Shown here piece after piece: positions 115 to 26,528 of a DNA stretch of 48,607 nt. This DNA comes from Bacteroidetes bacterium GWF2_35_48. GTDB lineage: Bacteria; Bacteroidota; Bacteroidia; Bacteroidales; GWF2-35-48. Position 1 is the first letter of the stretch, and each line of letters begins with the position of its first letter. The stretch is from positions 1 through 48,607 of the forward strand of contig MEOG01000135.1 of assembly GCA_001769125.1 (NCBI GenBank). Direction: 5' to 3'. A program made the translations under genes and the position numbers. Below the pieces are notes generated by a model. That model did not search any database. It had not been told where the DNA came from and saw nothing but the letters and a program-made list of their open reading frames with translations.

Positions 115-3100
115 ATTTCAATTCCACTATGGGACGATTAAAAGCTCAATCAGAACCGCTTGTACGAATACAAGGATAATTTCAATTCCACTATGGGACG
201 ATTAAAAGTAATGTTTCCGGTGGGGAATGGGATTGGGAACTGTATTTCAATTCCACTATGGGACGATTAAAAGGGACTTTGACGCGGTTACTGGGTCGCT
301 TTCAAACGTATTTCAATTCCACTATGGGACGATTAAAAGTCTTTTATAATTGCGGGAATGAGTTAAAAATAATTAAATTTCAATTCCACTATGGGACGAT
401 TAAAAGATATTGCAATAATGTTAAATTCGCTTGTTGGCTGATTTCAATTCCACTATGGGACGATTAAAAGTAATATTGACTTTTGCATTGTTCCTCCTTC
501 GGCGATTTCAATTCCACTATGGGACGATTAAAAGAAGCTTGCGCAGCGGTCATAAGACCATTCAGGTTATTTCAATTCCACTATGGGACGATTAAAAGGT
601 CCCTTTTTGTAAATTATATTCAAATTTTCTTTATTTCAATTCCACTATGGGACGATTAAAAGCTGCCTCTGCTTGAGCTGTTCCAAAAAGAACAATATTT
701 CAATTCCACTATGGGACGATTAAAAGCTGCAATAAGTCTTGCGTTTGCTTCCGCTTCTTCGATTTCAATTCCACTATGGGACGATTAAAAGAGTTGGAAA
801 GGTTGTAGTTTATGCAACACCAACAGCGATTTCAATTCCACTATGGGACGATTAAAAGGAGTATCAGAACCGATGGGCTTTAAGTCTATTTTAAATTTCA
901 ATTCCACTATGGGACGATTAAAAGAGATTGCATACATCAATCGTACAAGCCCTGCGCAATTTCAATTCCACTATGGGACGATTAAAAGCTCCTATTAACG
1001 CCGACATAATACCCGAAACAATATTTCAATTCCACTATGGGACGATTAAAAGATACAACCAATTTTATTGATTGTAGCTGCTTTTTTATTTCAATTCCAC
1101 TATGGGACGATTAAAAGTGCAAGTCCTTTTGTCCCCGAAAACCCTGCAACTATTTCAATTCCACTATGGGACGATTAAAAGATTATTCAGTATATGCCAT
1201 TAATGCTGCTCCCGTATTTCAATTCCACTATGGGACGATTAAAAGAATATTTACAATGTTACAAATCATGCACTTGTGTTATTTCAATTCCACTATGGGA
1301 CGATTAAAAGTTGCAGATGGTCAAATAAGACAGTTTCCTAATCTAATTTCAATTCCACTATGGGACGATTAAAAGTTTTATGGCTACCGATACTATCCGA
1401 GCGGAGGGAATTTCAATTCCACTATGGGACGATTAAAAGTCAAAACTCCAAGCGTATTCTTCTTTGTTGACTGATTTCAATTCCACTATGGGACGATTAA
1501 AAGAGAGAATGCTTGGAACCGTGAAGACTATAAATTAATTTCAATTCCACTATGGGACGATTAAAAGAATAATTCTAATAATACCGTTGTTTTTCCACTC
1601 CCATTTCAATTCCACTATGGGACGATTAAAAGCGTGTTGGCAGGGTCTATGTTGTTTGAATAGCATATTTCAATTCCACTATGGGACGATTAAAAGGTAA
1701 TGTGCTTGTTACTATAACAGGTTCTTGTGCAATTTCAATTCCACTATGGGACGATTAAAAGTCTTAATGTCAGCTTCTAATACTGCTTGTTCATCATCAT
1801 TTCAATTCCACTATGGGACGATTAAAAGGAAGGGTGGAATGGGGAGTGGAAGAGTTGGTTCTGTATTTCAATTCCACTATGGGACGATTAAAAGGATTGT
1901 GTTTTTTGAACCATTCTATTGTTTTATTATTTCAATTCCACTATGGGACGATTAAAAGCTAATCTTATTACTGACAACTTATCTATCTTTGCTTTATTTC
2001 AATTCCACTATGGGACGATTAAAAGAACTTTATTCAGAGAGTCCATTAGCTCAAAAAGTAATTTCAATTCCACTATGGGACGATTAAAAGTACAAATGGC
2101 GGAGAAGGTGTAAAGGGTTTAAAAATTTCAATTCCACTATGGGACGATTAAAAGTAAATAGTTGCAGATACATTGTGATAATTAACTCCCATTTCAATTC
2201 CACTATGGGACGATTAAAAGTGCGTGGCAAAACCGAACACATACAACCATACGTTATTTCAATTCCACTATGGGACGATTAAAAGCCATCAACTTCAACA
2301 AATACTTTCTTTATTTGTCTATTTCAATTCCACTATGGGACGATTAAAAGGAGAGGATCTTCCAACATTCCACCCAACTACTTCATTTCAATTCCACTAT
2401 GGGACGATTAAAAGATGCGAAGTCCTCTTCTTTCTCATACTCTTCTCCTGTATTTCAATTCCACTATGGGACGATTAAAAGTCTATCAATGCCTGAAGTT
2501 GATACTGAATAATTAATTTCAATTCCACTATGGGACGATTAAAAGTAAAAAAGAATGTTTAAATGGATTTGATACTACAATTTCAATTCCACTATGGGAC
2601 GATTAAAAGACTGTATTAGATTTTACAATGGGTGCTGGTGCTTGATTTCAATTCCACTATGGGACGATTAAAAGCATCTATGAGAAGTATGCAGTTTGCA
2701 GGAAGAGCAAATTTCAATTCCACTATGGGACGATTAAAAGCATTTGCATCTCTCATTATAAAAGACTTTATTCTATTTCAATTCCACTATGGGACGATTA
2801 AAAGTAAAGTTACAGCATTTAAAAGAAAAGCCTTTGGGTAATTTCAATTCCACTATGGGACGATTAAAAGAGGAAACATCAATACAACAATGTTTAATAC
2901 AGTTATTTCAATTCCACTATGGGACGATTAAAAGCATAAGGTGGGTCACAATAAATAATACTTTCCGTATTTCAATTCCACTATGGGACGATTAAAAGTG
3001 TATCGCTTTTATTATTGCTCCCTGTCCTGCACTATTTCAATTCCACTATGGGACGATTAAAAGGAGAAATTGACAGATTGACAAAATCAGGTTCATCATT

Positions 3101-6100
3101 TCAATTCCACTATGGGACGATTAAAAGGTTTCTTTTCAATCTCATTAACTTCTTTCTTTGCATATTTCAATTCCACTATGGGACGATTAAAAGATTTGTT
3201 AATAGGATTGAGAATACAACTATTGAATGATTTCAATTCCACTATGGGACGATTAAAAGCCTGCTGAAAGAGATGTTGACGATAAGTCACCTCTATTTCA
3301 ATTCCACTATGGGACGATTAAAAGTGTTGAGCCTATTGATTACGAATATGTCTTAACCATTTCAATTCCACTATGGGACGATTAAAAGCAACGTTACAGC
3401 GGTTTGCATACTCATAAAGAGTATTTCAATTCCACTATGGGACGATTAAAAGTAAGACTCCACGAAAGATTAAAGAAGTATGCAACGATATTTCAATTCC
3501 ACTATGGGACGATTAAAAGTTAAAAGAAAAGCTTTTGGATATGGTGCTGATTGATTTCAATTCCACTATGGGACGATTAAAAGCCGGCAGTACCGGCGCT
3601 TTAATCTCCCCAACGTAATTTCAATTCCACTATGGGACGATTAAAAGTCAAAACTCCAAGCGTATTCTTCTTTGTTAGTTGATTTCAATTCCACTATGGG
3701 ACGATTAAAAGTAAATGGATTCTACCCTTCATTTGTCCAAATATACAAATTTCAATTCCACTATGGGACGATTAAAAGTTATAAAACCTATTTAGTAAAT
3801 CATTTCTTTGATAATTTCAATTCCACTATGGGACGATTAAAAGAAAGACAAACACCCTAAAGAACTTGTTGGTTTTTGATTTCAATTCCACTATGGGACG
3901 ATTAAAAGAAATCAACAACAGGAGATCTTCTTGTAGATGGTGATTTCAATTCCACTATGGGACGATTAAAAGGTATCGCTTTTATTATTGCTCCCCGCCC
4001 TGCGCTATTTCAATTCCACTATGGGACGATTAAAAGTTTGCAAACTTTAAAGATGTTAACCAAAATTCTAAATTTCAATTCCACTATGGGACGATTAAAA
4101 GGATCAAACGCTGAGCAACCCTCTTCGATCATTATATTTCAATTCCACTATGGGACGATTAAAAGTTGAAATATATAGCTCCAATAAATAGGTTTATTTT
4201 ATTTCAATTCCACTATGGGACGATTAAAAGTTAGATATTGGCTTTGACCCTGAAAGATATAAAAAAATTTCAATTCCACTATGGGACGATTAAAAGTGCA
4301 CTTTTAGATTCATCTATATCTATACCACCCCCATTTCAATTCCACTATGGGACGATTAAAAGCCTCATCATATACAGTGTAATACGTTACATTCTTTATT
4401 TCAATTCCACTATGGGACGATTAAAAGCTACCATATTACTAAATGCTGTTAATTGTATATGTTATTTCAATTCCACTATGGGACGATTAAAAGTCTTTTG
4501 CCATCATTAAATCAGTATAACCTGCTCCATTTCAATTCCACTATGGGACGATTAAAAGTCTTGAGAGGTTAGTAAGTGGATTAGGTAAAGCTATTTCAAT
4601 TCCACTATGGGACGATTAAAAGCACACATTGCAATTGATGGTGTATCTAATAATGAATTTCAATTCCACTATGGGACGATTAAAAGGGATTTAAGAAAAT
4701 CTGCACCAACAGGTTTTGCATTATTTCAATTCCACTATGGGACGATTAAAAGTGCGAAGTCCTCTTCTTTCTCATACTCCTCTCCCGTATTTCAATTCCA
4801 CTATGGGACGATTAAAAGTATATCTGTAATATCAATACTTCTCCGATCTCCTCTATTTCAATTCCACTATGGGACGATTAAAAGAGTAAGAATCTTCAGA
4901 TGATAGATTTACTTTGTCAATTTCAATTCCACTATGGGACGATTAAAAGAAATGCCTATGCAAGATATATCTGGGAAAAACATAAATTTCAATTCCACTA
5001 TGGGACGATTAAAAGGAAGCAGACAATCTTATATAAAAATATTGAGTTACTGCATTTCAATTCCACTATGGGACGATTAAAAGGAGATAAAAACAGGTAG
5101 GTATGAAGTTTATTTATATTTCAATTCCACTATGGGACGATTAAAAGTGTCAATGTGATCAACAAGAGGCAAAACGCATTTTTCATTTCAATTCCACTAT
5201 GGGACGATTAAAAGAAGTCTTCTATACTGAAAACAGCTTTAGGGTCTGCCATTTCAATTCCACTATGGGACGATTAAAAGAGTTCCGGACCATCGGATGG
5301 AATCAACCTGGTAAGCCATTTCAATTCCACTATGGGACGATTAAAAGAGAGATAAAAACAGGTAGGTATGAAGTTTATTTATATTTCAATTCCACTATGG
5401 GACGATTAAAAGACGAGCCTCAGTACCATTAATAGTTTTAGATTTGCCATTTCAATTCCACTATGGGACGATTAAAAGCTTTTACCTGTTCTCTTAATTG
5501 TTCCAGTGAGAAATTTCAATTCCACTATGGGACGATTAAAAGATTAATTCTATCTGTAGGTATATGTACTGTTGTCCCATTTCAATTCCACTATGGGACG
5601 ATTAAAAGGGAAATCATTTGCGGCTTTTTCTACAATAAAATAATTTCAATTCCACTATGGGACGATTAAAAGAAACTTTGCTAACCCCTAATGAACTTAC
5701 TCCATTATTTCAATTCCACTATGGGACGATTAAAAGTTCTGAAATTTGATATAAATACAATTGATTTATCCATTTCAATTCCACTATGGGACGATTAAAA
5801 GGCGTTGGAAGGGGTTATAAATCTTTTAACGAAAACGCCATTTCAATTCCACTATGGGACGATTAAAAGAGGGTTCAAAAGGGCAATGAAATTCCCTTTT
5901 TTCATTTCAATTCCACTATGGGACGATTAAAAGATGCTCTTACAAGATTATCTGGTCATGTAAATGGATTTCAATTCCACTATGGGACGATTAAAAGTCT
6001 TCTTTTAAAGCTTCCAACATGGCTGACATCTGGAATTTCAATTCCACTATGGGACGATTAAAAGAGTCCCCATCAATAAAACAAACTTTATGACCTGAAT

Positions 6101-9100
6101 TTCAATTCCACTATGGGACGATTAAAAGAAAAGACAAAGGCACTGAAGGGAAAGCTGACCTTAATTTCAATTCCACTATGGGACGATTAAAAGCTTCCAG
6201 CTTACGAACCTTTTCAATGATTTGCTGATTTCAATTCCACTATGGGACGATTAAAAGTTTGGTTCTGGTGATAACTGGACTGCGACAATACCAATTTCAA
6301 TTCCACTATGGGACGATTAAAAGCTGAAATCCGTAAAATTATGGATGCCACTCCGGAATTTCAATTCCACTATGGGACGATTAAAAGTAATTTTAAAAGT
6401 ATTAAGCATATTGTCTAATTTTATTTCAATTCCACTATGGGACGATTAAAAGTACAAACATTCGTTTCAAGATTTTTGTTTTCCTCATTTCAATTCCACT
6501 ATGGGACGATTAAAAGAAAAAAATAAAGAGGCTTGCTTGAACATTTTATCATTTCAATTCCACTATGGGACGATTAAAAGGAAAATTATTATGGACAGCC
6601 CATACTCCCGTTTTAGTATTTCAATTCCACTATGGGACGATTAAAAGACAGCGACTACTGATTCGTAGTTTGTCGGGGTTGATTTCAATTCCACTATGGG
6701 ACGATTAAAAGTTTATTAACTGGTGCTTGTGATTCAGGCGTTCGTCAAATTTCAATTCCACTATGGGACGATTAAAAGACTTCAGCTTTCAAAGTTGCAA
6801 TCTCGCTGTCCTGATTTCAATTCCACTATGGGACGATTAAAAGTCCATTCTACCCATTCTTCTGTATGTCGTTTGTAATTTCAATTCCACTATGGGACGA
6901 TTAAAAGTTTCCATTCTACCCATTCTTCTGTATGTCGTTTGTAATTTCAATTCCACTATGGGACGATTAAAAGATTTCGGAAAAACCAAAACTAAGGTAG
7001 TTATAACTATTTCAATTCCACTATGGGACGATTAAAAGAAATTATCAGGGATCTGTACCTTGCAGCTCCGCTATTTCAATTCCACTATGGGACGATTAAA
7101 AGGGTAATAACCATAAGCACACAATACGGATGCTCAAATTTCAATTCCACTATGGGACGATTAAAAGCCGGAAACGTCTGTATTAAACACTTCCCAAAGG
7201 TTATTTCAATTCCACTATGGGACGATTAAAAGACTTGGTTATAACCTGCCTATAACTTGGTTATAACTATTTCAATTCCACTATGGGACGATTAAAAGCA
7301 GCCTTAAAGAGCCTATAACCTGACCATTTTTATAATTTCAATTCCACTATGGGACGATTAAAAGGAGTTGGTCTGCCATTTCACGGACAGGACTTGGCAA
7401 TTTCAATTCCACTATGGGACGATTAAAAGTTTGCAGTTTTGCGTGCAATAAATTCCTTTTGCGATTTCAATTCCACTATGGGACGATTAAAAGCGTTTTG
7501 TTCGCAAAATACACAGGGAGCGTAATCAATTTCAATTCCACTATGGGACGATTAAAAGTTTATGGAGGCAAAAAGGCAGACGGGACTGTCCTTATTTCAA
7601 TTCCACTATGGGACGATTAAAAGACAGGAAAACAAAACAGTTATGTCGATAAATACACATTTCAATTCCACTATGGGACGATTAAAAGTCCATTCTACCC
7701 ATTCTTCTGTATGTCGTTTGTATATTTCAATTCCACTATGGGACGATTAAAAGAGAATTTGCGGGTAAATGCAAAGAGAAAGCTAAATCATTTCAATTCC
7801 ACTATGGGACGATTAAAAGTAATGAACGCTAACGGTTGCGGGTATGAAAGCGGTATTTCAATTCCACTATGGGACGATTAAAAGACGAGGGAGGTACTAA
7901 TTTTGTCACCAATCTCGCAATTTCAATTCCACTATGGGACGATTAAAAGTGCCCAGTAGGAATGTTATGTTCAAATTTATTATAATTTCAATTCCACTAT
8001 GGGACGATTAAAAGTCCATTTTCTTTCTTCAAACGAAATGTATGAGCCATTTCAATTCCACTATGGGACGATTAAAAGAAGCACCCCATGTGGTAACAAA
8101 GTCGGTAACAGTTATTTCAATTCCACTATGGGACGATTAAAAGAAGACGTACAGCCTTATGCAGCTTGTTTATTTTAATTTCAATTCCACTATGGGACGA
8201 TTAAAAGCGGAAAAAAAGGCGGAGTTTTGGACTTGGTTTTTAATTTCAATTCCACTATGGGACGATTAAAAGAATGTAATGTCAGCAGAATCCGCTGCAC
8301 CAGCAGCAGATTTCAATTCCACTATGGGACGATTAAAAGGCTTTTCTTCCCATCGGGAGCCGCGGCATGCTGCTCCATTTCAATTCCACTATGGGACGAT
8401 TAAAAGTCAGATGCCAGCGCATCAAGAGTTGTTTAATTCTATTTCAATTCCACTATGGGACGATTAAAAGGATGGAGCTTCCGATGTCGCAGCAGCCGGA
8501 CTTGATTTCAATTCCACTATGGGACGATTAAAAGGTATTTATGCAGACTACAACCCGACCCATGAGTTTATTTCAATTCCACTATGGGACGATTAAAAGC
8601 GAGGGAGGTACTAATTTTGTCACCAATCTCGCAATTTCAATTCCACTATGGGACGATTAAAAGACAACGGAGCGGCAACGTTCTATGATGTTCGCACAGA
8701 AATTTCAATTCCACTATGGGACGATTAAAAGCAAAAATAATTATTGCCACCGATAACGACTCGCCATTTCAATTCCACTATGGGACGATTAAAAGTTTGT
8801 GGCGTGGCTTCTGACTGTGATGAGTACGAGATTTCAATTCCACTATGGGACGATTAAAAGATAGACCATGTTTGTGAACGTCTTAATATTATTCAATTTC
8901 AATTCCACTATGGGACGATTAAAAGATATATCATTCAATGTTTTTTCCTACATTTCATTTATTTCAATTCCACTATGGGACGATTAAAAGCCTGAAAAAT
9001 CAGGGTGCGAGTTTAGGGCAGGTGATTTCAATTCCACTATGGGACGATTAAAAGCACGAATGAGGCAACTTGATTTAGACAGGTACAAGTATTTCAATTC

Positions 9101-12100
9101 CACTATGGGACGATTAAAAGAGCCAATAATTGTGTTTACCCCTGAAAATATTACTCAAATTTCAATTCCACTATGGGACGATTAAAAGTCAGATGCCAGC
9201 GCATCAAGAGTTGTTTAATTCTATTTCAATTCCACTATGGGACGATTAAAAGAAGACGTACAGCCTTATGCAGCTTGTTTATTTTAATTTCAATTCCACT
9301 ATGGGACGATTAAAAGCCGGAAGAGATTGAAAAAACATTATTGCAAGTTGCAAATTTCAATTCCACTATGGGACGATTAAAAGTAAGATGATTAATGCTT
9401 TATTTGACAAGTCTGGAATTTCAATTCCACTATGGGACGATTAAAAGTTGAACAATGCTGTATTGTTTCAACAACCGGAATTTAATTTCAATTCCACTAT
9501 GGGACGATTAAAAGAAAGAAAACTTTAAGAGAGCGGTGGCTTTTTTTCTTTATTTCAATTCCACTATGGGACGATTAAAAGGAAACCTGCCTGTAAGTCA
9601 GATTGAGAAACGATTATTTCAATTCCACTATGGGACGATTAAAAGTACCTAAATCAATACCTCTTTGTTGTAACATCCATTATTTCAATTCCACTATGGG
9701 ACGATTAAAAGTTATTTTGTCAATAATTGAATTTGAAATATCTTTATTTCAATTCCACTATGGGACGATTAAAAGTAAAAACAACCGCCTCAATAACTTT
9801 TACATTATTTACATTTCAATTCCACTATGGGACGATTAAAAGCATCGGTTCAATATACACCGTTCGGGTGTTTATATATTTCAATTCCACTATGGGACGA
9901 TTAAAAGGTAAAATCAACTCTCGAAAAAAGGAGATTAGAGCATTTCAATTCCACTATGGGACGATTAAAAGACAGAACCGAAGCCAAGCAAAGCCTCTGA
10001 TAAATCATTTCAATTCCACTATGGGACGATTAAAAGATAATATTTAACTGTAAATTCAGTTTCTTTTTTAATATTTCAATTCCACTATGGGACGATTAAA
10101 AGAATTCCATGAAAGAGGCAGATTCGTTTTTTTATCATTTCAATTCCACTATGGGACGATTAAAAGCAATTCCGTTTATTAAACAGCTCCCATTTGCGTC
10201 ATTTCAATTCCACTATGGGACGATTAAAAGTTAGAACCAAGGCGGAATCGCTGGCAACAACATCATTTCAATTCCACTATGGGACGATTAAAAGGCATAT
10301 CCCTGTAGCTCGTCTCCTCCTGAATCTATGATTTCAATTCCACTATGGGACGATTAAAAGTCTTAAAAATTGTAACTCATCGGGCGTTATTCGGTATTTC
10401 AATTCCACTATGGGACGATTAAAAGTGTCAAGTGGTTTTTGTTCTGAATTTCTTAGATGGTATTTCAATTCCACTATGGGACGATTAAAAGGGCTGTGTT
10501 GGCTGTTGTATGCCTTGCTGTTGTTATTTCAATTCCACTATGGGACGATTAAAAGAGTTATGTGGATTTAATTTGGGAAGTCGCAAGGGAATTTCAATTC
10601 CACTATGGGACGATTAAAAGCGCCCCATTTTGCAATTTCAGTTTTTACTCCTTCCATTTCAATTCCACTATGGGACGATTAAAAGTCGCACGCTGCCTAA
10701 GGGTGTTCGTATTTTTGAAAATTTCAATTCCACTATGGGACGATTAAAAGTTCGACAGCATCAAAAACCGCAAAGCTTTCATAATATTTCAATTCCACTA
10801 TGGGACGATTAAAAGAACAACTAAAATTTATTTATGAAATCTGTTGTTTATTTCAATTCCACTATGGGACGATTAAAAGAGATGATTCTAAAGTTGTTGT
10901 TACGATTGCCGAAATTTCAATTCCACTATGGGACGATTAAAAGTAGGGTCGCAGCTTGGTAAGATAGCAAAAAACACAAATTTCAATTCCACTATGGGAC
11001 GATTAAAAGTTTCTAATTTTTCAGCTTTCAACTGTCTTTTTTGTTATTTCAATTCCACTATGGGACGATTAAAAGAATTGAAACACAAATGTAGCCTTGT
11101 GCCTAACGAAATTTCAATTCCACTATGGGACGATTAAAAGTAAAAAATCATCAATATAAGAGCAACTTTCTTCTGAATTTCAATTCCACTATGGGACGAT
11201 TAAAAGATTTCGGAGCAGAAAAGTAGCAGTTGTGCCTAACGTATTTCAATTCCACTATGGGACGATTAAAAGAGCCTTAAAGAGCCTATAACCTGACCAT
11301 TTTTATAATTTCAATTCCACTATGGGACGATTAAAAGTCGTTTATCGAAAATCTGAATTATCGGGTTGGCGATTTCAATTCCACTATGGGACGATTAAAA
11401 GCAAAATTATCAGGGATCTGTACCTTGCAGCTCAGCCATTTCAATTCCACTATGGGACGATTAAAAGCTACTTTTAAATTCATGCAGTGAGCAGTATTCA
11501 AAATTTCAATTCCACTATGGGACGATTAAAAGTGCACCAGCAGCAGCAGCAACTTCTGCAATCGGGTATTTCAATTCCACTATGGGACGATTAAAAGTCA
11601 TGTTTCAATGGATTATAACGGCACGCCTTACGTATTTCAATTCCACTATGGGACGATTAAAAGAATTCATTAGAGGCTGCATGGCTGTATTTTTTTTTAT
11701 TTCAATTCCACTATGGGACGATTAAAAGTTTCTTTACCATCTTTGTCTTTTACCTCAATCCTAATTTCAATTCCACTATGGGACGATTAAAAGTGTTTTT
11801 CTTTTTCTTTTTCTTCGGTCATAAGCAGTATTTCAATTCCACTATGGGACGATTAAAAGCATCGGCTGTGTATTGAGCATTAACAATCCCTCTATTTCAA
11901 TTCCACTATGGGACGATTAAAAGCGAGGGAGGTACTAATTTTGTCACCAATCTCGCAATTTCAATTCCACTATGGGACGATTAAAAGTTATGGAGGCAAA
12001 AAGGCAGACGGGACTGTCCTTATTTCAATTCCACTATGGGACGATTAAAAGTTGTAAAGGCTTCAAAAGACAGAACAGGTTTATTTAATTTCAATTCCAC

Positions 12101-12181
12101 TATGGGACGATTAAAAGCGAGCGGAGAGATAAGCACCGTAACGGGTGCGCTATTTCAATTCCACTATGGGACGATTAAAAG
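115..12181 (-). CRISPR. Type I-B CRISPR array, 186 repeats / 185 spacers
   Basis: A 30-bp repeat (plus strand begins ATTTCAATTCCACTATGG and ends GACGATTAAAAG) recurs every 64-68 bp from 115-144 to 12152-12181. I counted 186 copies by following start positions, with spacers of 34-38 nt. I noticed no sequence difference between repeats, not even at the end far from the leader. The reverse complement ends in ATTGAAAT, the usual 5' handle of I-B crRNAs, so the array is transcribed on the minus strand from the right. The adjacent minus-strand cas genes and AT-rich leader agree. Many spacers are repeated or nearly repeated. All small ORFs inside are artefacts of repeat periodicity. Confidence 0.99.
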
Positions 12182-12389: not shown

Positions 12390-12656
12390 TCAAATAATAT
12401 TATCCAATACATTTTTTTCTTTTCCTATTACCATTTTTTCTAACCAATTTTCATTTTGGCTCTTAAATACAATGATACTGTCTCCCTCCTCTTTCTCCAT
12501 CTTTTCCTCTGCCTGATGCAACAATTCCTTTAGCTTTACCTCTGTAATCTCTCCTTCAAAAACAGAATTCTGAATCCAATGCAAATACCTTCTGCATAAT
12601 TTAAGCATTTTACCTACCCTTTTTTCTCCTATGTCGTAAACTAATATTATGTACAT
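12390..12656 (-). CDS. cas2: Cas2, CRISPR adaptation endoribonuclease-fold protein
   Basis: This 88-residue protein has the normal Cas2 length and begins MYIILVYDIG, the first beta strand with the conserved metal-ligand aspartate (D8). It continues with the family's QNSVFEGEIT segment near residues 29-38. Cas2 forms the core dimer of the Cas1-Cas2 integrase that inserts new spacers at the leader. It is the last cas gene before the leader, as is common. It starts 4 bp after the stop of an unrelated four-helix-bundle gene that separates it from cas1, so the two are probably co-transcribed and perhaps translationally coupled. Confidence 0.96.
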   Translation of the reverse strand: MYIILVYDIGEKRVGKMLKLCRRYLHWIQNSVFEGEITEVKLKELLHQAEEKMEKEEGDSIIVFKSQNENWLEKMVIGKEKNVLDNII

Positions 12657-13164: not shown

Positions 13165-13425
13165 CCTCATCAATCTCCCCTCAATCTCCCATCAATCTAC
13201 CTCATCAATCTACCCTCAATCTACCCTCAATCTACCTCATCAATCCCATCAATCTATCCCATCAATCTATCTCCTCAATCAATCTCCTCAATCAATCTAT
13301 CTCATCAATCTATCCTCAATCTATCCTCAATCTATCCTCAATCTATCCTCAATCTATCCTCAATCTATCCTCAATCTACTATCAATCTATCTCATCAATC
13401 TATCTCATCAATCTCCTCCCCCCTC
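13165..13425. repeat. Minisatellite tract B between cas1 and the four-helix-bundle gene
   Basis: About 260 bp of degenerate tandem units, mainly CCTCAATCTA (10 bp) mixed with CTCATCAATCTAT variants. The tract is most regular around 13310-13380. It begins about 40 bp upstream of the four-helix-bundle start and ends at the cas1 stop codon. ORFs drawn through it (Ser/Ile/Leu/Pro-rich) are translated repeats and not genes. The unit is clearly related to tracts A, C and D. Confidence 0.9.
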
Positions 13426-14430
13426 CTACCACCACATTTTAAAAGGCTTATACTCCTCAATATTCATAATATGTTTTATCAGCTTGTAACATTCTAATCG
13501 TATCAAATATTTATAGCTGACATTTCTTTTCAAACTCCTGTGCTGAATTGTTTCGTTAAGCCTGTCTTCAAAGGATTGTACAAATATTTTTTTTCCCGAC
13601 TCATTCAACAAACAACTGTTAAGATTTTTGTCAAAATGCTTTTCCTGTATTTCTTTTTTATTCATCACTTTAAAAATTACACGATCTACCAACAAAGGCT
13701 TAAATATCTCAGCAATATCAAGCGCAAGACTGTAACGACGTTCTCCGGGTGCATGCAAAAAACTAATCGTCGGATTCAACTGTGTCTGATGAATCGCCCG
13801 CAAACACTGAGAATAACACATCATGTTTCCAAAAGAAATAAGCGCATTTACTTCGTTTAAAGGCGGCTGTTTTGTTCTGTTGCCCATTTCAAAATCACTC
13901 AGAATTAAATTAAATGCTTCGTAATAATTCATTCTTATATTCCCCTCCAAACCCATTATTTCATCTACTTCTTTCATCTCAGGGAAATGCTCCAGATGCT
14001 TTTCTATATTTTTTATTATATATTCCAAATCCTTCCCGCGATTGTTATAATACTTCAGATTTTTCAGCATGTTAGATGCTGCTCCTTCAATAAATTTTCG
14101 GGCAATTCCTACACGCCTGATCTTGTTTTGATACGTTGAAACCTGTGCTAATAATAATTTACCGGAAAGCAAATGCTCTTTTGGCATAAAAGATCCGGTA
14201 TAGTTTTCAAAATAATCAAAAAAGTTAACTATAATATTGTGCTTCCCTAAAAAATTATACAATGCACTGTTGGCATCAAGGGAGCCAAAAACATAAAGTT
14301 CTTCTATTCCTTCTACAGGAATAAATTTCGGCTGCCCCTCCCCTCCCTTCTCGTCCACGGGTGTAAACTTCAATGTATTATCCTGACGAGATAAACGGCC
14401 TGGGTTAAAAAGATAATACGTCTTTTTCAT
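13426..14430 (-). CDS. cas1: Cas1, CRISPR spacer integrase (type I-B)
   Basis: This 334-residue protein has the family's usual length and two-domain plan. The C-terminal helical domain carries the metal site: E162 in LEGNIRMNYYEAF, H226 in FLHAPGERRYSLALD, and D238/E241 in LDIAEIFKP. Cas1 with Cas2 cuts and joins new spacers into the leader-end repeat. The reading frame is intact and the catalytic residues are present, so adaptation is probably active. The cas1 stop codon abuts minisatellite tract B. Upstream, 128 bp and a FISUMP lipoprotein gene separate it from cas4, so the usual cas4-cas1-cas2 block has been opened twice by cargo genes. Confidence 0.97.
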   Translation of the reverse strand: MKKTYYLFNPGRLSRQDNTLKFTPVDEKGGEGQPKFIPVEGIEELYVFGSLDANSALYNFLGKHNIIVNFFDYFENYTGSFMPKEHLLSGKLLLAQVSTYQNKIRRVGIARKFIEGAASNMLKNLKYYNNRGKDLEYIIKNIEKHLEHFPEMKEVDEIMGLEGNIRMNYYEAFNLILSDFEMGNRTKQPPLNEVNALISFGNMMCYSQCLRAIHQTQLNPTISFLHAPGERRYSLALDIAEIFKPLLVDRVIFKVMNKKEIQEKHFDKNLNSCLLNESGKKIFVQSFEDRLNETIQHRSLKRNVSYKYLIRLECYKLIKHIMNIEEYKPFKMWW

Positions 14431-15510: not shown

Positions 15511-15678
15511 TCCTCCAACAATCCCATCAACCTCCTTCAATCCCCCTCAACCTCCTTCAATCCCCCTCAATCCCCTCAATCCCCTCAATCTATCTCATCA
15601 ACCCTCATCAATCAATCCCCTCAATCCCCTCAATCCCCTCAATCCCCTCAATCTCCTCAATCCCCTCAATCCCCTCAA
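15511..15678. repeat. Minisatellite tract C downstream of cas4
   Basis: About 168 bp of tandem CCCCTCAAT-type units (9-10 bp, with CCTCCTTCAA and CATCAATC variants), most regular at 15605-15678. The last unit overlaps the end of cas4: the TGA stop of cas4 (15675-15677) is the TCA of a CCCCTCA unit read on the other strand. The tract separates cas4 from the FISUMP lipoprotein gene. Confidence 0.92.
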
Positions 15679-16181
15679 AATTCCGCACTCCAGCAAAAGT
15701 CATGATATGAACATTTATTACAAATTTTTTGATGCGTGGCAACAGGACATATCTCTGAATTTATTATTTCAGTAATTTTTTGTTTTATCGTTTCTATTTC
15801 TTCAATATCAGGGCTGCTTAATACTATTTTATCTGTCTTTCGCAATGCCGGATATTCCAGTATTCCTGTTACTCCCTCCACCCCATTTTTTAGTAAAACA
15901 TAGATGTAATATTTCAACTGCCATTCATGAGCAATTTCTACTTTATCGGATTTTTTTGTTTCATGTATTATTTTGTTCTTTGCATCATAAAAATCTATTT
16001 TTATTCCCTCAATTTCTATCTCTTCGTATTTCTCCGATCGTTGCGGATAGCTTGTCTCGTGAATAAGTTTACCTTCATATACCAAATCACTTGTATGTTC
16101 CATATTTATCCCTGTTGCGAAAAGCCAGAGCTTACGCCTACATAGGAAGTAATAGTGAATATGGGTTCCGGTGATGTTCAT
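15675..16181 (-). CDS. cas4: Cas4, Fe-S exonuclease for prespacer processing
   Basis: This 168-residue RecB-like nuclease has the four-cysteine iron-sulfur site: C14 in YYFLCRRKLWLF, and three C-terminal cysteines in KICNKCSYHDFCW. The nuclease motif is D63 (IDFYDAKNK) followed by the E-x-K of IHETKKS (E74, K76). Cas4 trims prespacers and helps select the PAM-bearing end, which fits the fixed end seen in repeated spacers of this array. Its ATG overlaps the stop of the upstream fic gene as ATGA, so the two are translationally coupled. The stop codon is supplied by a minisatellite unit. Confidence 0.95.
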   Translation of the reverse strand: MNITGTHIHYYFLCRRKLWLFATGINMEHTSDLVYEGKLIHETSYPQRSEKYEEIEIEGIKIDFYDAKNKIIHETKKSDKVEIAHEWQLKYYIYVLLKNGVEGVTGILEYPALRKTDKIVLSSPDIEEIETIKQKITEIINSEICPVATHQKICNKCSYHDFCWSAEF

Positions 16182-18238: not shown

Positions 18239-20698
18239 TTAAATTAAACATTCAGCTCCTTGCAAATCAATTCCCTGATTAAATGAATAAGAAATTGGTG
18301 CAATTTTATAAAGGCCGAAATAATTCTTTTCACTACCTTGTAATGGTTTTATTTGGTTGCGATTTAAACGAACCTGAACAATTTGACTAGACATTTTTTT
18401 CAATTGTATTTTAATCGATTTCTTTTTTTGTCGAATGATATTCCTATCTGCATTTTTCTTTATCAAATTAATAAGTTCACCTTGCATCGTTAAAAGATCT
18501 TCGAATTTCACATCATCCAGTTTTCTGGAAACAAAGTACTGAATCTCCTCTCCGAATAATTGCTTATCAATCAACTGAAACTTACCAATTCTATCAAATT
18601 GACATTCTACAATATCTTTTATAAAATCAAAATCTGGCTTAATCCCATTTTGAGAATGCCGTGCAAAGTTTAACTCCGATTGAATACGGTTAAAAAATTC
18701 TTTCTGAACTGCAAGTAGCTCCTTTTCCTGATATTGCTTTTCGGAGAATGATTCTTTGGTAAATCGCAAGATTTCTTTGTCTTTGCCCTGATAAATAAGT
18801 TCTGAACGAATTTTCCCTCTATTCTGTAATTTAAAGAGTTTAACTCTCCCGAATGAATTAAGTTTTCCATTTCGATTACACCTTCCTGCGGATTGAACAA
18901 TACTGGCAACAGTTCCAAAATCTCGGTACAAAACAGGGAAATCAATATCAACTCCAGCTTCGATAAGCTGTGTAGAAACAACTACTATTCGTTTGTCTTG
19001 ACGTAAACTTCGTTTAGCTAAATAAATCTTCAGCTTTCGGTGCTGAGGAGTGAAATGGGTATTTAAAAGTAGTAGCTCATCAGTTTCCAATTTATCTTGA
19101 AGCTTTTTAAAAAGTTCCTTCGTGTCATCAATGGTATTAAGAATGACCAATACGGATTGATTTTCTGAAAGAACAGAATCCTTCAATGTTTCAATATCTA
19201 TCGGTTCTTTTTCGAATTCGATCTGATAACGATTAAACAAGTCATTTTCGAAATAACTTAAAGGCAACAAGGAGATTGGTTTTTCGTAATCGGAAAAGAA
19301 ATTCTTTGCGTCTGAATTGTTTACAGGTAGTTCAAAGTTGGGCTGGGTGGCTGATGAAATAATTGCGTAACTATTGAATTTAGTACAAAATTTTTTGATG
19401 TAGGCCACAAAGAATCCATATAACCTTGGAGGTAATGCCTGTATTTCGTCCAATAAAAATATGCACTTCGAGAAATTCGGCAACTTTAGTAATTCAGCAT
19501 TCCGATTACTTAATAGTGTTTCGAAAAAGCGAACGAAAGTTGTAATGACAAAAGGATAGGCAAAAGTATTCTCCTGAAACTCAAGAATATTTGCTTCTAA
19601 AATCTTTTCTTCGGTTGGGCTATCATCCAATTCTGCCTGAATCGTTTCAAATCGGTGGTTTTCCGATTTTGAATCTATTCGTTGGATAAACTCTTCGTTA
19701 CCTTCAAATATTTTCAAAACCTCAGCCTCAACTTGCTCTGTGATGGAAAGAAAAGGCAATCCGTATATAATTCGTTTAGCTCCCTTTTCTTTGATTATTT
19801 CCGAAGCTAATGAAAGCATCATCAAGGTTTTTCCTGAACCAGTGGGAGCTGTTAGCTCGAACACATGTTCATCGCTCCTTAATCCTTCACGGATATTCAG
19901 AACAGCATTATTTCTGATTGTTGTCCTCAATTTGTTAAGTTCGGAATACTGATTCAGTTTTCCCAAATATAAATCAAGCTGAGGATTAAAGCACTTTGAG
20001 AATGTTTGTATAGTTTCAAGTTGATCATCGATGATATTCCCGATTTTTCCAGCATCGGCTTTGTCTGCCTGTATCACACTTGCAAACGCAAACTGGTTAT
20101 CTAAAAAGAAATCTAAAGCCGACTTATTATTTTCTCCCTTGAAAACAAGTTGTTCAGAATATCCTCGTTGCACATTTTGTGTAGTAAGGAATTGCCGAAA
20201 ATCATTGATACTTATAAAATGATTGATAAATTCATAAACCGGCAGGTTCTTCTCCTGATTAAGGAAATAATACAACGCAGAGTTTTCATCTTTTGATAAA
20301 ATGCTTGCTCCTGTTCCAGTGTGATCGGTAGGTGAAAAATCAGGAAGGTTTCCGTGATGTTTAGCAATTGATACTGTCAATGCAATTAGATCATTTTGAC
20401 TGAAATTGTCAACATCTAAAAACTGCTTCAATGCTTCCATGTTTTGTATGGAACAACCGAAGGTACAGAAAAAAGCATAAGCCGATAAATAAGAATGATT
20501 TGCATAGCCATTTACTGTTTTATCAGGGTCAAGCTTGCTTTGAAAATTAGGATTTATCTTTCCCAGATCATGAAAAAGAGCTACCAACTCCGCTATCTTG
20601 GAGCTGGATAGCTTTTTTGTATTATCTCTTACACCCTGAACATGAGTTAATAATAACTTATCCGGGTGAGATAGGAGTGTGTTTATATCAGACACCAT
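18239..20698 (-). CDS. cas3: Cas3, HD nuclease-helicase
   Basis: The 819-residue protein combines an N-terminal HD nuclease (H19; H43-D44 in ALFHDLGKINPNFQ; a later KHHG near 115) with a superfamily 2 helicase. The helicase shows Walker A APTGSGKT near 283, the DEIQ Walker B near 414, SSATQP after it, and the motif VI segment QSAGRCNRNGK near 601. Cas3 is recruited by Cascade after R-loop formation and degrades target DNA. All key residues are present, so interference looks functional. Its start overlaps the end of cas5 by 16 bp, and the CcbP-like gene follows 6 bp downstream. Confidence 0.97.
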   Translation of the reverse strand: MVSDINTLLSHPDKLLLTHVQGVRDNTKKLSSSKIAELVALFHDLGKINPNFQSKLDPDKTVNGYANHSYLSAYAFFCTFGCSIQNMEALKQFLDVDNFSQNDLIALTVSIAKHHGNLPDFSPTDHTGTGASILSKDENSALYYFLNQEKNLPVYEFINHFISINDFRQFLTTQNVQRGYSEQLVFKGENNKSALDFFLDNQFAFASVIQADKADAGKIGNIIDDQLETIQTFSKCFNPQLDLYLGKLNQYSELNKLRTTIRNNAVLNIREGLRSDEHVFELTAPTGSGKTLMMLSLASEIIKEKGAKRIIYGLPFLSITEQVEAEVLKIFEGNEEFIQRIDSKSENHRFETIQAELDDSPTEEKILEANILEFQENTFAYPFVITTFVRFFETLLSNRNAELLKLPNFSKCIFLLDEIQALPPRLYGFFVAYIKKFCTKFNSYAIISSATQPNFELPVNNSDAKNFFSDYEKPISLLPLSYFENDLFNRYQIEFEKEPIDIETLKDSVLSENQSVLVILNTIDDTKELFKKLQDKLETDELLLLNTHFTPQHRKLKIYLAKRSLRQDKRIVVVSTQLIEAGVDIDFPVLYRDFGTVASIVQSAGRCNRNGKLNSFGRVKLFKLQNRGKIRSELIYQGKDKEILRFTKESFSEKQYQEKELLAVQKEFFNRIQSELNFARHSQNGIKPDFDFIKDIVECQFDRIGKFQLIDKQLFGEEIQYFVSRKLDDVKFEDLLTMQGELINLIKKNADRNIIRQKKKSIKIQLKKMSSQIVQVRLNRNQIKPLQGSEKNYFGLYKIAPISYSFNQGIDLQGAECLI

Positions 20699-21393
20699 TT
20701 TTCTAATTCTTTCGATGATTGATATTCGTAGTACTTTCCTTCAACTGTAATTGAGTGAGGAGAATCAGGATAAATGACATTCTTGTATTTATCCGGCAGA
20801 TTCCAGAAATCATCGTTCTGGAAAGTGGGCATCTTGTCAAAGCCTATACGAAATCCGCCCGAAATATCCTTGGGGGTATGTTCTCCGGCAAGTACAAATC
20901 CTTTGGTTTCAAATGTTCCATTTCTGATTTCCGAAAATTCACCTTCTGATTTCCATTGAAGGTTTGCGGGACAATTATGCCAGCCTAATACCGGTGGATA
21001 AATAGCTTCTTCCTGTTTTATTGCCTTTTTGAAATCTTCGAAATCGGATTTCGAATGCTCATCCTTTAATGCTATTGAAACCAAAAACCTGGGGTCTTTC
21101 AAAAACTCAAAATACTTTGGTGTTCCTTCAGCAGTCGGGCTTATGGCAGTTCGACTGGTAAAGCCCCATGAAATCTTTTTTACCGGATTTAGTAACTGAA
21201 CTCCATAAAGTAAATCTTCCGACAATTGAGGAAATTTGCTCTTCATATCTTCACGTTCAATTCCCAGCACAGCCCCGATTAGTCCAATCAGAGCTGTTTT
21301 AGTAATTAAATCGTGAGACAGAGGGTTATTATTCGTTTCCGGCTTTTTGAAATGCCCCCAATTACCTTCTATGATAAGTTGGAAACCTTTCAT
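20683..21393 (-). CDS. cas5: Cas5, Cascade subunit (type I-B)
   Basis: This 236-residue RAMP protein begins MKGFQLIIEGNWGHFKKPET, the Cas5 first strand with the conserved G-x-x-x-F/H-x-K/R segment. It continues with LITKTALIGLIGAVLGIERE, typical of Cas5 in I-B systems. In Cascade, Cas5 caps the crRNA 5' handle. It overlaps cas7 by 4 bp upstream and cas3 by 16 bp downstream, so the interference genes are tightly coupled. Length is normal and there is no sign of damage. Confidence 0.94.
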   Translation of the reverse strand: MKGFQLIIEGNWGHFKKPETNNNPLSHDLITKTALIGLIGAVLGIEREDMKSKFPQLSEDLLYGVQLLNPVKKISWGFTSRTAISPTAEGTPKYFEFLKDPRFLVSIALKDEHSKSDFEDFKKAIKQEEAIYPPVLGWHNCPANLQWKSEGEFSEIRNGTFETKGFVLAGEHTPKDISGGFRIGFDKMPTFQNDDFWNLPDKYKNVIYPDSPHSITVEGKYYEYQSSKELEKWCLI

Positions 21394-22334
21394 AATTCAA
21401 TCGCTTCAAATTTTGAATTCCCTGAAAGTTTAGATTTTATTGACTCAATCTCTGTGTAGAATTTGATTTTTTCAATTTTTTCTGAACTTGCAGCTTCAAC
21501 TAATTTTGAAAAATCAAGGTTGTAATCATCCATACTGCGAAGTTGCTCCCCTTTTTTTTCGTCTTTTGGTTCTAATTTGATCAAACGATCTACACCATAG
21601 ATTTTTTGATTGGTTTTAGCGTATTCAATTTCAAGTAATAGAACTGAATTCTGACCAACTTTACTGCGAGAGTGAGAACTTCCGTCTCCACTGGTTCCAT
21701 ACCAAAGTCCTTCATACATCAATTTCAAATCAGCTGGCGATAATCCTGTTTTTTCAGCAACTTTGGGATTTACCCAACCATGAATTTGCATTAAGGAATA
21801 TGGGACTAAAGTTGTTGTTCCAATAGAACCCTGTGTATTCTCTGCCTTTGAAGTGAAATGTGTTGTGTTCTGGTGCATTCTCAAATTTACTTCATTAAGC
21901 GACGGGTTTAGCAACGCAAATTGAACCGGCCCAGTAAATTGAGTGTGCCCATTTTTCATTTCTTTTCCATCGACTTTAATTTTTTTCGCATCATCTCCTA
22001 ATGTTGAAATTCCGCCAAATAACTTTACATCAATTTGTTCTTTCAGCAATTCTGCAATGTCCAATAATTTATTAGGATTACGATTTTCTGCAATCCAAGT
22101 AAGGACACCTTTTGAATCACTTTTACCTGCTCCGGTTTTTTCACTTACATAAATTGGTAATCCTTTTTCTTCAAAATAAGTTCGTATGTATCGTTTCATT
22201 CGTACATCACTTACTAATATCTTTTTAGTTTCCTCATCATAGCGCTGTTCCCCTGTAAAAGGATCGCCATTAGGAATATTATACGAGGTCTCGTATAAAA
22301 ACAAAATTTCTGCTTTTTTTAATTCGTTTTTCAT
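21390..22334 (-). CDS. cas7: Cas7 (Csh2-type), Cascade backbone
   Basis: This 314-residue protein starts with SYNIPNGDPFTGEQRYDEETKKILVSD in its first 45 residues, the hallmark of type I-B Cas7/Csh2. It also has VRMKRYIRTYF, then HTQFTGPVQFALLNPSLN and GTTTLVPYSLMQIHGWVNP. Several copies form the Cascade filament along the spacer part of the crRNA. It is encoded 20 bp after cas8b and overlaps cas5 in an ATGA junction, so stoichiometry is probably set by translational coupling. Confidence 0.95.
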   Translation of the reverse strand: MKNELKKAEILFLYETSYNIPNGDPFTGEQRYDEETKKILVSDVRMKRYIRTYFEEKGLPIYVSEKTGAGKSDSKGVLTWIAENRNPNKLLDIAELLKEQIDVKLFGGISTLGDDAKKIKVDGKEMKNGHTQFTGPVQFALLNPSLNEVNLRMHQNTTHFTSKAENTQGSIGTTTLVPYSLMQIHGWVNPKVAEKTGLSPADLKLMYEGLWYGTSGDGSSHSRSKVGQNSVLLLEIEYAKTNQKIYGVDRLIKLEPKDEKKGEQLRSMDDYNLDFSKLVEAASSEKIEKIKFYTEIESIKSKLSGNSKFEAIEL

Positions 22335-22354: not shown

Positions 22355-24499
22355 TTATAAATTCTCAGTTATTTCTTGCACAATTGTTTCCTTTTTAGGG
22401 AAAGGTTTAAAGTAGCTTTCCATAAAGCCAAATGCACATTCTTCTTTATCATACCTTGATTTGAATTCTTTGACTTTCTGTGCCAAGTCATACGAAGCCT
22501 GAAAGGTGTACTTTGTTTTATCGTGCATGATTAGTTTTTGCTCGATTTCATTTTTTAGTTTAATAAAATCTGCCATGTTTCCAATTCTTCGGGTAAGATT
22601 ACCCACGAAGTTTTTCTCGAATGAATTAATTTCTTGGCTTAAATTCTTAGCCAATCCACCAAGTATGAGCCCAACCTGGTAACTTTCGGATGATGTAATT
22701 TCCATAAATTTATCAATTTTTGTGTTTTGTATTTTATAAAGAAATTTCAAATGGTATTTTAAATCGGCGTAATTAAACCAGATCGAATTTTTCTCAATAT
22801 TCCGAACTATGTATTCGGCGACTTGAATAAAAGACGATAGCAATAAATCGTCATGAAAATAGTTCGAATTATAAATCAGTGGCAGAGTTTTCAATAAATG
22901 AGATTCATATTTCGAACTTGTTTTATAATCAATCTTTCCATTACTATTAACAAAAGCATTCCCTAATATATTTCGAAATGAAATTTCAATTTGAAGGTTA
23001 TTGAATCCATTTTCAAAATTGAGAACACTCATTTTCTCTTGATTGATTTCCCTTGATATTGTTTCGATACATTTTTGAATATTCCGGAGTGTACTTTTCT
23101 CTATTCCGGAAATTTCAATTAGATCATTTGTTGTATTCCCACTACTATCAGAAAATACAAAGTCAAATCGAGTGAACCTTTCAGTACCTTCATTTTGAAA
23201 TATGGAAAAAATGGGTTCTGCGACTAATCTTGTCTCATCTTTTTTATCAAAAAAGAATGCATCATAGTCTTTTGCACTAATTTGTTCTCCATTAAAAGCT
23301 ACGGGATAAACAAACATATCAATATCTGTGTATCGCAATCGCCTAAATGATTTGTTAAGAATACTTCCAGTATATAGAAAGTCTTCAAACTGATCGTTAT
23401 TTTTAAATGAAAAAGATCTGAAACTTTTTCCTAAATCAAAAAAAGGAAACTGAATGTCATTTTTATCATTACCAGAACAAAGTGTACGATAAATACTTTT
23501 GCTTGGAACCAATCCATTCTCTGAAGTATTTGTAATTTCTGAATTTAACTTGTCTTTTATGAGTTTAAAAGCTTCATCAAATTGATGCCAACTTACAGTG
23601 TTATCATCCCGAATAAATTCAAAATGAATAAAAACGGTAAAGTCAGCAAATTGCAGCATTTTATTTTTTGTTTCCACTGATAATAAGTCTAAGCTTTCAT
23701 CTTTTTCAAGAAGTCGCTTTAGGATAGTTGGATTCTTCTTTTGAATTACATCTAAATATTTTTCTCGTAATGCCTCAGTGTTTGTTAGAACGGGTTCCAA
23801 TTCTTCCTTCTCATTCATAATAATATATTCGATAGCAGGAGCGAAAAGTAGCAAGCTGTTGAACTTTTCAATTTCTTTTTCAAAAGCAATGTGTAACTGT
23901 ATTAGTTCAAATTCCTTTTCATGCTCTTTTAGCCTTTGGATTGATGCTTCAATAATTGACGAATATTCAGTCAATTTCTTAGGGATATCAATCGTTTTTT
24001 CACTTTTGTGTCCAGATATAATGGTCTTTAAAACAGCTTCTTGATTTTTTTTCACAGTACCTAAAAACGGTAGAATTGTACTCGAATAATAAATGTCAAT
24101 GATCTCTTCGTAAGCTTTTAGACCGTTAATGAATGCATTTCCTTGTCCTTTTTCGAAAGTGAAATTTCCGAAATCCTTGACTCCTTTGATTTTTCCAGTT
24201 TTATCAACTTCACTTTTCCTCGTGTAGCAAATATCACCGAAAAGATATTTTTTTGGACTTGAATCATTGTCAGATGTTGTATACTTTAAATAGTATAACC
24301 TTTCTCTCTCTTTTTCTGGTGTAATCCTAACTTCTTTCCAATTAAAAGTAAAATCTGGATTAACCGGAATCGTAATACAAATTGGCCACTCTCCTGTTTT
24401 ATTATCTTTTGGACAAGGCTCGACATATTTGAAATATTTCAGACTATTCTCCGAACTTCGGAGAACTTTGCCTATTTGAAGTACTGTGTCTAAACTCAT
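22355..24499 (-). CDS. cas8b: Cas8b (TM1802/Csh1-like), Cascade large subunit
   Basis: The protein is about 714 residues. I start it at the ATG at 24499 (MSLDTVLQIGKVLRSSEN); the frame is open 7 codons further but only from a TTG. The N-terminal half has the TM1802-family pattern: LKYFKYVEPCPKDN, ITIPVN, KKYLFGDICYTRKS. The large subunit recognises the PAM and recruits Cas3. It follows a 160-bp gap after an unknown small gene and precedes cas7. Sequence in this family is fast-evolving, so assignment rests on the N-terminal pattern, size and gene order. Confidence 0.9.
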   Translation of the reverse strand: MSLDTVLQIGKVLRSSENSLKYFKYVEPCPKDNKTGEWPICITIPVNPDFTFNWKEVRITPEKERERLYYLKYTTSDNDSSPKKYLFGDICYTRKSEVDKTGKIKGVKDFGNFTFEKGQGNAFINGLKAYEEIIDIYYSSTILPFLGTVKKNQEAVLKTIISGHKSEKTIDIPKKLTEYSSIIEASIQRLKEHEKEFELIQLHIAFEKEIEKFNSLLLFAPAIEYIIMNEKEELEPVLTNTEALREKYLDVIQKKNPTILKRLLEKDESLDLLSVETKNKMLQFADFTVFIHFEFIRDDNTVSWHQFDEAFKLIKDKLNSEITNTSENGLVPSKSIYRTLCSGNDKNDIQFPFFDLGKSFRSFSFKNNDQFEDFLYTGSILNKSFRRLRYTDIDMFVYPVAFNGEQISAKDYDAFFFDKKDETRLVAEPIFSIFQNEGTERFTRFDFVFSDSSGNTTNDLIEISGIEKSTLRNIQKCIETISREINQEKMSVLNFENGFNNLQIEISFRNILGNAFVNSNGKIDYKTSSKYESHLLKTLPLIYNSNYFHDDLLLSSFIQVAEYIVRNIEKNSIWFNYADLKYHLKFLYKIQNTKIDKFMEITSSESYQVGLILGGLAKNLSQEINSFEKNFVGNLTRRIGNMADFIKLKNEIEQKLIMHDKTKYTFQASYDLAQKVKEFKSRYDKEECAFGFMESYFKPFPKKETIVQEITENL

Positions 24500-24661
24500 A
24501 GAATATTTTTTAAATTTCAATATTTTTCACACCTCCCCTTAAAAAGTCGAACTCAACCCACACAAATCCCCAACTATTACAAAGGGTTAAACTTACATAC
24601 GTCTTCCGCACTTTACTTTTCAAATTCTTTTCTTGATTGCGCCATTTTAATCTTTTCTATT

Positions 24662-26461: not shown

Positions 26462-26528
26462 TTCATTTTGATTGTTTTTACTAATACGTAAAATTAAATA
26501 ATTTATAACATACAATCTGTAATTGTTT

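What the first reader, a model, noticed from the sequence alone, without database searches (positions are those of the whole stretch)
1440..11437. Near-duplicate spacers differ only in the PAM-proximal seed
Four spacer families have copies that differ in sequence: 1440-1473/3648-3681, 2415-2451/4753-4788, 2999-3033/3973-4006 and 7039-7072/11402-11437. Aligned at the plus-strand right end (crRNA 5' end), differences fall at positions 3,4,5; 3,9; 3,9,11; and 1,4. The remaining 23 or more distal bases are identical in every pair, and 8 of the 9 changes are transitions. In type I systems these positions are the seed, where a mutation lets a phage escape. The simplest reading is that escape mutants were re-sampled at the same protospacer, so the array records both parental and escaped seed. 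I know of the seed and of primed adaptation as established facts; a natural array showing paired seed variants this cleanly would be notable.
Basis: partly seen in the sequence, partly recalled or inferred. Interest (0 to 1): 0.88.

Follow-up and report, generated by a model that had tools for sequence, protein, structure and literature searches.

The report
CRISPR spacer pairs differing in seed
A bacterial immune memory holds pairs of almost identical virus snippets that differ only at the end where the virus must be recognised first, which most likely records viruses that mutated to escape and were then remembered a second time.

Summary
The window is a whole contig with a complete type I-B CRISPR-Cas operon and one array of 186 identical repeats and 185 spacers. 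Comparing all spacers finds exactly the four near-duplicate pairs named, at the stated coordinates. A fifth, shifted pair (sp144/sp133) differs at positions 3 and 9 of the older spacer. Exact duplicates also occur, so re-sampling of a protospacer does not need escape. Among 4127 spacers fetched from other genomes I found 16 low-divergence pairs; 13 of their 20 mismatches lie in positions 1-11 (expected 6.2, p 0.0015). One genome supplies 5 of the 16; without it p is 0.03, and a genome-level sign test is not significant (p 0.11). Pairs with 5 or more mismatches show no bias. Best reading: seed-escape mutants re-captured at an unchanged PAM, by primed or interference-driven adaptation. No phage carrying either variant was found, so escape is inferred. 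The machinery is known; the within-array record may be new.

The parts
115..12181 (-). CRISPR array, 186 identical 30-nt repeats, 185 spacers; crRNA strand is minus (repeat ends ATTGAAAT, spacer follows)
   Evidence: this repeat occurs only here in the genome
12182..12389 (-). presumed leader (208 bp, 69% AT) between array and cas2; newest spacers are therefore taken to be at the right end
   Evidence: stretches of this flank (window 12197-12255 and 12218-12247) match other genomes of the order, not checked whether they adjoin arrays there
1440..1473 (-). sp165, older member of pair 1
3648..3681 (-). sp131, newer member of pair 1; differs at 3,4,5
2415..2451 (-). sp150, older member of pair 2
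4753..4788 (-). sp114, newer member of pair 2; differs at 3,9
2999..3033 (-). sp141, older member of pair 3; same peptide motif as a viral gene (SAGQGAIIKAI)
3973..4006 (-). sp126, newer member of pair 3; differs at 3,9,11
7039..7072 (-). sp79, older member of pair 4
11402..11437 (-). sp12, newer member of pair 4; differs at 1,4
2805..2840 (-). sp144, older member of the shifted pair; differences at its positions 3 and 9
3520..3553 (-). sp133, newer member of the shifted pair, starts 12 nt upstream; differences at its positions 15 and 21; gives CCA as the PAM-side trinucleotide of sp144
12390..12656 (-). cas2 (Cas2b)
13426..14430 (-). cas1 (Cas1b)
15675..16181 (-). cas4 (Cas4b)
18239..20698 (-). 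cas3 (Cas3b, helicase and HD domains)
20683..21393 (-). cas5 (Cas5b)
21390..22334 (-). cas7 (Cas7b)
22355..24520 (-). cas8b1 (no NCBIfam or Pfam hit; PADLOC Cas8b1 E 1.9e-168)
25676..26608 (-). cas6 (Cas6b)

Best explanation
[quoted passage not shown] After an older spacer was in use, phage variants with changes in its PAM-proximal seed were no longer cut but kept the PAM, so the adaptation machinery could take a second spacer from exactly the same protospacer, now carrying the changed seed. Shown: the paired spacers, their positions, the complete cas operon, separate acquisition of 3 of the 4 pairs (different 3' ends), and a like positional bias in other arrays. Inferred: that the changes are escape mutations, that the right end is the newer end, and that acquisition was primed or interference-driven. 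A corollary is that PAM escapes cannot appear in such a record, because re-capture at the same place needs the PAM.
For: All 10 mismatches in positions 1-11 of 34-36. Complete type I-B operon with cas1, cas2, cas4. Separate acquisition: 13 of the 20 low-divergence pairs (3 of 4 here, 10 of 16 elsewhere) and 6 of the 9 same-start exact duplicates of this window differ in 3' length. Shifted pair: the two differences fall at positions 3 and 9 of the older spacer but in the middle of the newer one. Other genomes: 16 low-divergence pairs among 4127 spacers, 13 of 20 mismatches in positions 1-11, expected 6.2, p 0.0015; 11 of 14 in genomes with a Cas3 over the cut-off, p 4e-4, a subset chosen afterwards. 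Control: 9 pairs with 5 or more mismatches are uniform, 19 of 55 in positions 1-11, expected 17.2. Five viral homologues of the pair-3 site differ from sp141 at 35 places, only 5 of them in positions 1-11 (four of the five were found with a pattern that from position 4 on allowed almost only codon-third changes). Of 25 low-divergence mismatches at positions 1-13 none is at 6 or 12, positions not paired in Cascade (p 0.015; position 6 in PMC4390866; every sixth nucleotide in PMC12871591).
Against: No protospacer of either variant of any pair was found (rows listed). Exact duplicates (44 same-start pairs in all arrays, 14 with different 3' ends) show re-sampling without escape. Without genome G399 the outside test weakens to p 0.034, and one value per genome gives 8 of 11 (p 0.11). 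Four of the 16 outside pairs have no mismatch in positions 1-11: [13], [15], [20,27], [26]; a fifth, [4,31], has one distal mismatch. One mutation is usually enough to escape, yet the window pairs carry two or three. The synonymous-change test is inconclusive (9 of 14 pairs, null 7.0, p 0.14). Of four other shifted pairs with differences, taking the leader side as newer, two fit the older-seed pattern but are low-complexity (L088 at 8,11; L206 at 1,3,7) and two do not or only in part (L127 at 17,32; L239 at 11,12,13,15). Positions 6 and 12 are hit in some pairs with 5 or more mismatches (L047, L235, L101).
Confidence: 0.66

Rival explanations
1. Standing diversity: two related phage lineages that already differed were each sampled at the same protospacer, with no escape from the older spacer involved.
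For: Same-site re-sampling is common here (7 exact families). Pairs with 5 or more mismatches in other arrays are presumably just this, and are uniform. Several differences sit at codon-third positions in a possible reading frame. Multiple differences per pair.
Against: Neutral differences should fall anywhere; all 10 are in positions 1-11 (p about 2e-5, or 1.4e-3 by tract) and the outside set leans the same way. Viral homologues of pair 3 vary mainly distally (with the pattern caveat).
Confidence: 0.2
2. Acquisition error: the PAM-proximal end of a prespacer is damaged or copied wrongly while it is trimmed and integrated, so one copy of each pair is simply a faulty copy.
For: Would also put differences at one fixed end, and the shifted pair alone cannot exclude it.
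Against: There are 20 low-divergence pairs against 44 same-start exact duplicates, and 13 against 14 if only pairs with different 3' ends are counted, which would need a very high error rate. Differences reach position 11-13 and are mostly transitions (9 of 10 in the window, 17 of 20 outside). One outside pair (L047) has 7 changes in its first 15 nt that are all silent in its only open frame.
Confidence: 0.08
3. Sequencing or assembly error, or chance.
For: The genome is a draft in 142 contigs and long arrays are hard to assemble.
Against: 186 repeats (5580 bases) carry no mismatch, so fewer than about 0.15 errors are expected in the eight spacers against 10 differences seen (polishing to a consensus repeat could hide some errors). 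Errors would not choose one end.
Confidence: 0.04

Closest known systems
Type I-B CRISPR-Cas with Cas8b1 (cas6-cas8b-cas7-cas5-cas3-cas4-cas1-cas2)
   Same: All eight genes identified on one strand next to the array.
   Different: Three genes that are not cas genes sit inside the operon (Fic, FISUMP, 23S-IVP). Nothing about the machinery is new.
Phage escape by PAM or seed mutation (as stated in the introduction of PMC10132644; passages)
   Same: Same positions as the seed; changes mostly transitions.
   Different: Known from phage genomes and laboratory selections; here both the old and the changed seed are kept side by side in one natural array.
Primed and interference-driven adaptation (PMC5059440, passages)
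   Same: A matching or mismatched older spacer stimulates new acquisition from the same invader.
   Different: The passages I saw describe new spacers near the primed site, not re-capture of the escaped protospacer itself.
Haloferax volcanii type I-B seed (PMC4390866, passages)
   Same: First 10 nt essential, position 6 free; here positions 1-11 are hit and 6 is not.
   Different: That map came from mutagenesis; this one is read from natural arrays.

Membership tests
Type I-B CRISPR-Cas | cas3 plus a Cas8b/Cas7/Cas5/Cas6 effector | tested here: met
   Cas3b, Cas8b1, Cas7b, Cas5b, Cas6b by NCBIfam and PADLOC
Type I-B CRISPR-Cas | adaptation module cas1, cas2, cas4 | tested here: met
Type I-B CRISPR-Cas | PAM on the 5' side of the protospacer | tested here: inconclusive
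   CCA next to sp144 read from sp133; CCN before 5 homologues of sp141, but that is a conserved Pro codon; sp153 target TAT, self-target of sp86 ACA, sp60/sp10 overlap CTG
Seed-escape record | mismatches between paired spacers confined to the seed | tested here: met
   10 of 10 in positions 1-11
Seed-escape record | bias repeats in independent arrays | tested here: met
   13 of 20, p 0.0015; p 0.034 without G399; genome sign test p 0.11 not significant
Seed-escape record | phage carrying the escaped seed with an intact PAM | tested here: inconclusive
   none found in 4 viral-contig scans for the pairs or in the rows listed for phages and plasmids
Seed-escape record | older spacer fails against the newer variant | not testable with these tools
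   needs an interference assay

The most novel reading that the evidence does not exclude
Near-duplicate spacers inside single type I arrays are a general fossil record of seed escape: low-divergence pairs mark the seed, spare the flipped-out positions 6 and 12, and can be used to read the seed, and the strength of escape selection, of uncharacterised CRISPR systems from genome sequence alone.
Probability: 0.45. Interest if true: 0.78.

Novelty: new variant of a known kind. Interest (0 to 1): 0.6.

Why it matters
Seed escape and re-acquisition are known mainly from laboratory work and from mismatches between spacers and phages (recalled; in part PMC10132644, passages). If paired seed variants are escape records, a single genome holds both the attack and the counter-move in order of time, at the same site. 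That would allow seed maps for unstudied systems and estimates of how often phages escape by changing the seed in nature, using existing genomes. My ten full-text searches (open-licence papers only; searches returned no paper; two searches listed 20 of 92 and 8 of 19) showed no paper that, from its title and the start of its abstract, describes this pattern.

Tried and rejected
Protospacer search: back-translated or exact cores of the four pairs in viral contigs gave 0, 0, 4 and 0 contigs. The 4 hits for pair 3 are homologues that match sp141 with 6-8 mismatches, not the sampled phages. Patterns for sp153, sp81/82/69, the sp144/sp133 gene and sp4/55/66 gave 6, 0, 0 and 0 contigs. My sp153 pattern fixed position 5 to the base seen in LR756500.1, so it cannot tell how common the spacer's own base is; I draw nothing from it. 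Phages: 40 of 52 and 29 of 29 records were listed; plasmids 2 of 2 and 2 of 2. The one strong match listed is sp153 in the uncultured 462-kb phage LR756500.1, with one mismatch at position 5.

Synonymous-change test: 9 of 14 pairs can be silent in some open frame, null mean 7.0, p 0.14: not used as evidence.

What the survey covered: 113 stretches, of which 74 gave arrays; arrays from 10 of the 13 other genomes that matched; from 10 of the 17 that matched; from 18 of the 24 other genomes that matched. One fetched stretch (L220) was left out by my id filter; one search shows that it is the same array as L137 and adds nothing. Three array stretches were held twice (L045/L230, L044/L231, L043/L232; 28 exact cross-matches); they contain no variant pair.

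Dropped before the counts: cross-genome low-divergence pairs [8,10,11], [1,2] and [19,22,34]; a low-complexity pair L042/L110; all shifted pairs; divergent pairs with a shift (L101, L093 3282/6333, two L127 rows); and L046/L087, found after the control test. The cas type of outside arrays was checked only by Cas3: 9 of 12 genomes over the cut-off, the three without being G404, G400 and G584; G433 was not tested. A search with the window's Cas8b1 found a relative in 1 of 11 genomes.

Considered and rejected: a diversity-generating retroelement (changes are not adenine-specific); duplication within the array for the three window pairs with different 3' ends (pair 1 has equal ends, so for it this is not excluded). 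Not attempted: a polarity test in type II arrays, where the bias should sit at the other end.
Full report
What is there. The window is an entire contig (G000:C135, 48,607 bases). It carries a type I-B CRISPR-Cas operon on the minus strand: cas6, cas8b1, cas7, cas5, cas3, cas4, cas1, cas2, with a Fic gene, a FISUMP-domain gene and a 23S-IVP gene between them. A 208-bp AT-rich stretch separates cas2 from the array. The array has 186 repeats, all identical, and 185 spacers. Leader position, and hence age order, is inferred from the cas side; stretches of this flank also match other genomes of the order, where I did not check for arrays.

The four pairs. Every pair of spacers was compared, ungapped with shifts and by blastn-short. 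There are 10 differences, 9 of them transitions. All lie in positions 1-11. If mismatches are placed at random the chance is about 2e-5; if each pair is one clustered tract placed at random it is 1.4e-3. The 5580 repeat bases carry no mismatch, which argues against base errors.

Copies and shifted pair. Seven families of exact duplicates (11 pairs) are also present. Nine of these pairs start at the same base, 6 of the 9 with a different 3' end; sp69 starts one base earlier than its two partners. Three of the four variant pairs also differ in length. This is what separate capture at one PAM-defined start gives. In the other arrays only 8 of 35 same-start exact pairs have different 3' ends (44 and 14 in all), so many of those may be duplications inside the array. 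With 17,020 spacer pairs and, as my rough assumption, a dozen recaptures, the effective pool here is only about 1,400 sites. A fifth case is shifted: sp133, the newer, begins 12 nt before sp144, the older; the two differences are at positions 3 and 9 of sp144 and 15 and 21 of sp133. The sequence before sp144, read from sp133, is CCA; CCN is a PAM of the Clostridioides difficile type I-B system (PMC8406132, passages). Four shifted pairs with differences in other arrays do not settle this: two fit but are low-complexity (L088, L206), L127 does not and L239 lies at positions 11-15.

Survey of other arrays. A relaxed repeat pattern in the genome collection gave 113 stretches, of which 74 gave arrays with 2096 spacers. 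Arrays from the same phylum added 452 spacers, a second repeat family, in the class of a Thermovorax genome, 1118, and arrays of the same order 461: 4127 outside the window, 4312 in all. Within-genome, offset-0 pairs with 1-3 mismatches number 16: [4], [9], [13], [20,27], [5], [3], [8], [10], [10], none, [2,4], [15], [4,31], [1], and [3], [10,13], [26] across stretches of one genome. Thirteen of 20 mismatches are in positions 1-11, expected 6.2, p 0.0015; 17 of 20 are transitions and 10 of the 16 pairs have different 3' ends. Genome G399 supplies 5 pairs; without it p is 0.034. One value per genome gives 8 of 11 at the seed end, p 0.11. So the replication is present but moderate. Nine pairs with 5 or more mismatches, which should be ordinary phage divergence, are uniform: 19 of 55, expected 17.2, p 0.34. 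Among the 16, 11 lie in genomes with a Cas3 over the cut-off and have 11 of 14 mismatches in positions 1-11; [20,27] lies in a genome without one, but so do [13], [8] and one [10]. This subset was chosen afterwards.

Fit to known seed rules. In Haloferax type I-B the first 10 nt must pair, position 6 excepted (PMC4390866, passages), and Cascade of E. coli leaves every sixth nucleotide unpaired (PMC12871591, passages). Of 25 low-divergence mismatches at positions 1-13 in window and outside pairs, none is at 6 or 12 (p 0.015 for a uniform spread); some pairs with 5 or more mismatches do have changes there. Five viral homologues of the pair-3 site (peptide SAGQGAIIKAI) differ from sp141 at 35 places, 5 of them in positions 1-11; the pattern that found four of them allowed almost only codon-third changes from position 4 on. 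So the distal part is not inherently frozen.

Mechanism. Most likely: the older crRNA selects phages with changed seeds; these keep the PAM, enter, and are sampled again at the same start, so the array holds both seeds. Acquisition may be primed by the mismatched target or driven by other matching spacers; in Pectobacterium the second route is the stronger (PMC5059440, passages). Exact duplicates fit the second route, or weak expression of old spacers deep in a long array (inference). Multiple changes per seed suggest several rounds, or recombination with a relative; outside pair L047 shows 7 changes in its first 15 nt, all silent in its one open frame, and none in the next 19 nt, which looks like a replaced tract.

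Limits. No phage with either variant was found. The age order is inferred. The silent-change test is inconclusive. The literature search covered open-licence papers only, in ten searches; five papers were seen in passages, the rest as listings, none in full.

Noticed in passing
window 2221-2255 (sp153); LR756500.1:400360: sp153 matches an uncultured 462-kb phage record and six viral contigs with a mismatch at position 5 (fixed by my pattern for the contigs). In the contigs the match begins where the upstream flanks stop resembling each other, as at the end of a mobile element; a genome of the same order matches the same spacer.
   Followed up: partly
window 6581-6617 (sp86); own contig C39:29708-29745: sp86 is a perfect self-match inside a 397-aa ORF without Pfam hit in the host's own genome, with ACA on the PAM side, so probably not cut.
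   Followed up: partly
window 12661-13128, 14559-15485, 16178-17752: Three genes that are not cas genes (23S rRNA intervening-sequence protein, FISUMP-domain protein, Fic-domain protein) interrupt the cas operon; tandem arrays of short units such as CCCCTCAAT lie near several of the gene junctions (12671-12753, 13170-13402, 15519-15678, 25531-25674).
   Followed up: no
L047 4494/4755 and 4884/5145: Spacer pairs with codon-wide changes crowded into the first 4-15 nt, one fully silent (CTC to TTA twice), which suggests replaced tracts rather than point mutations.
   Followed up: partly
window 8273-8309 and 11533-11567 (sp60, sp10): sp60 appears to overlap sp10 by 14 bases, but the sequence is a GCT repeat and may match by chance.
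   Followed up: no
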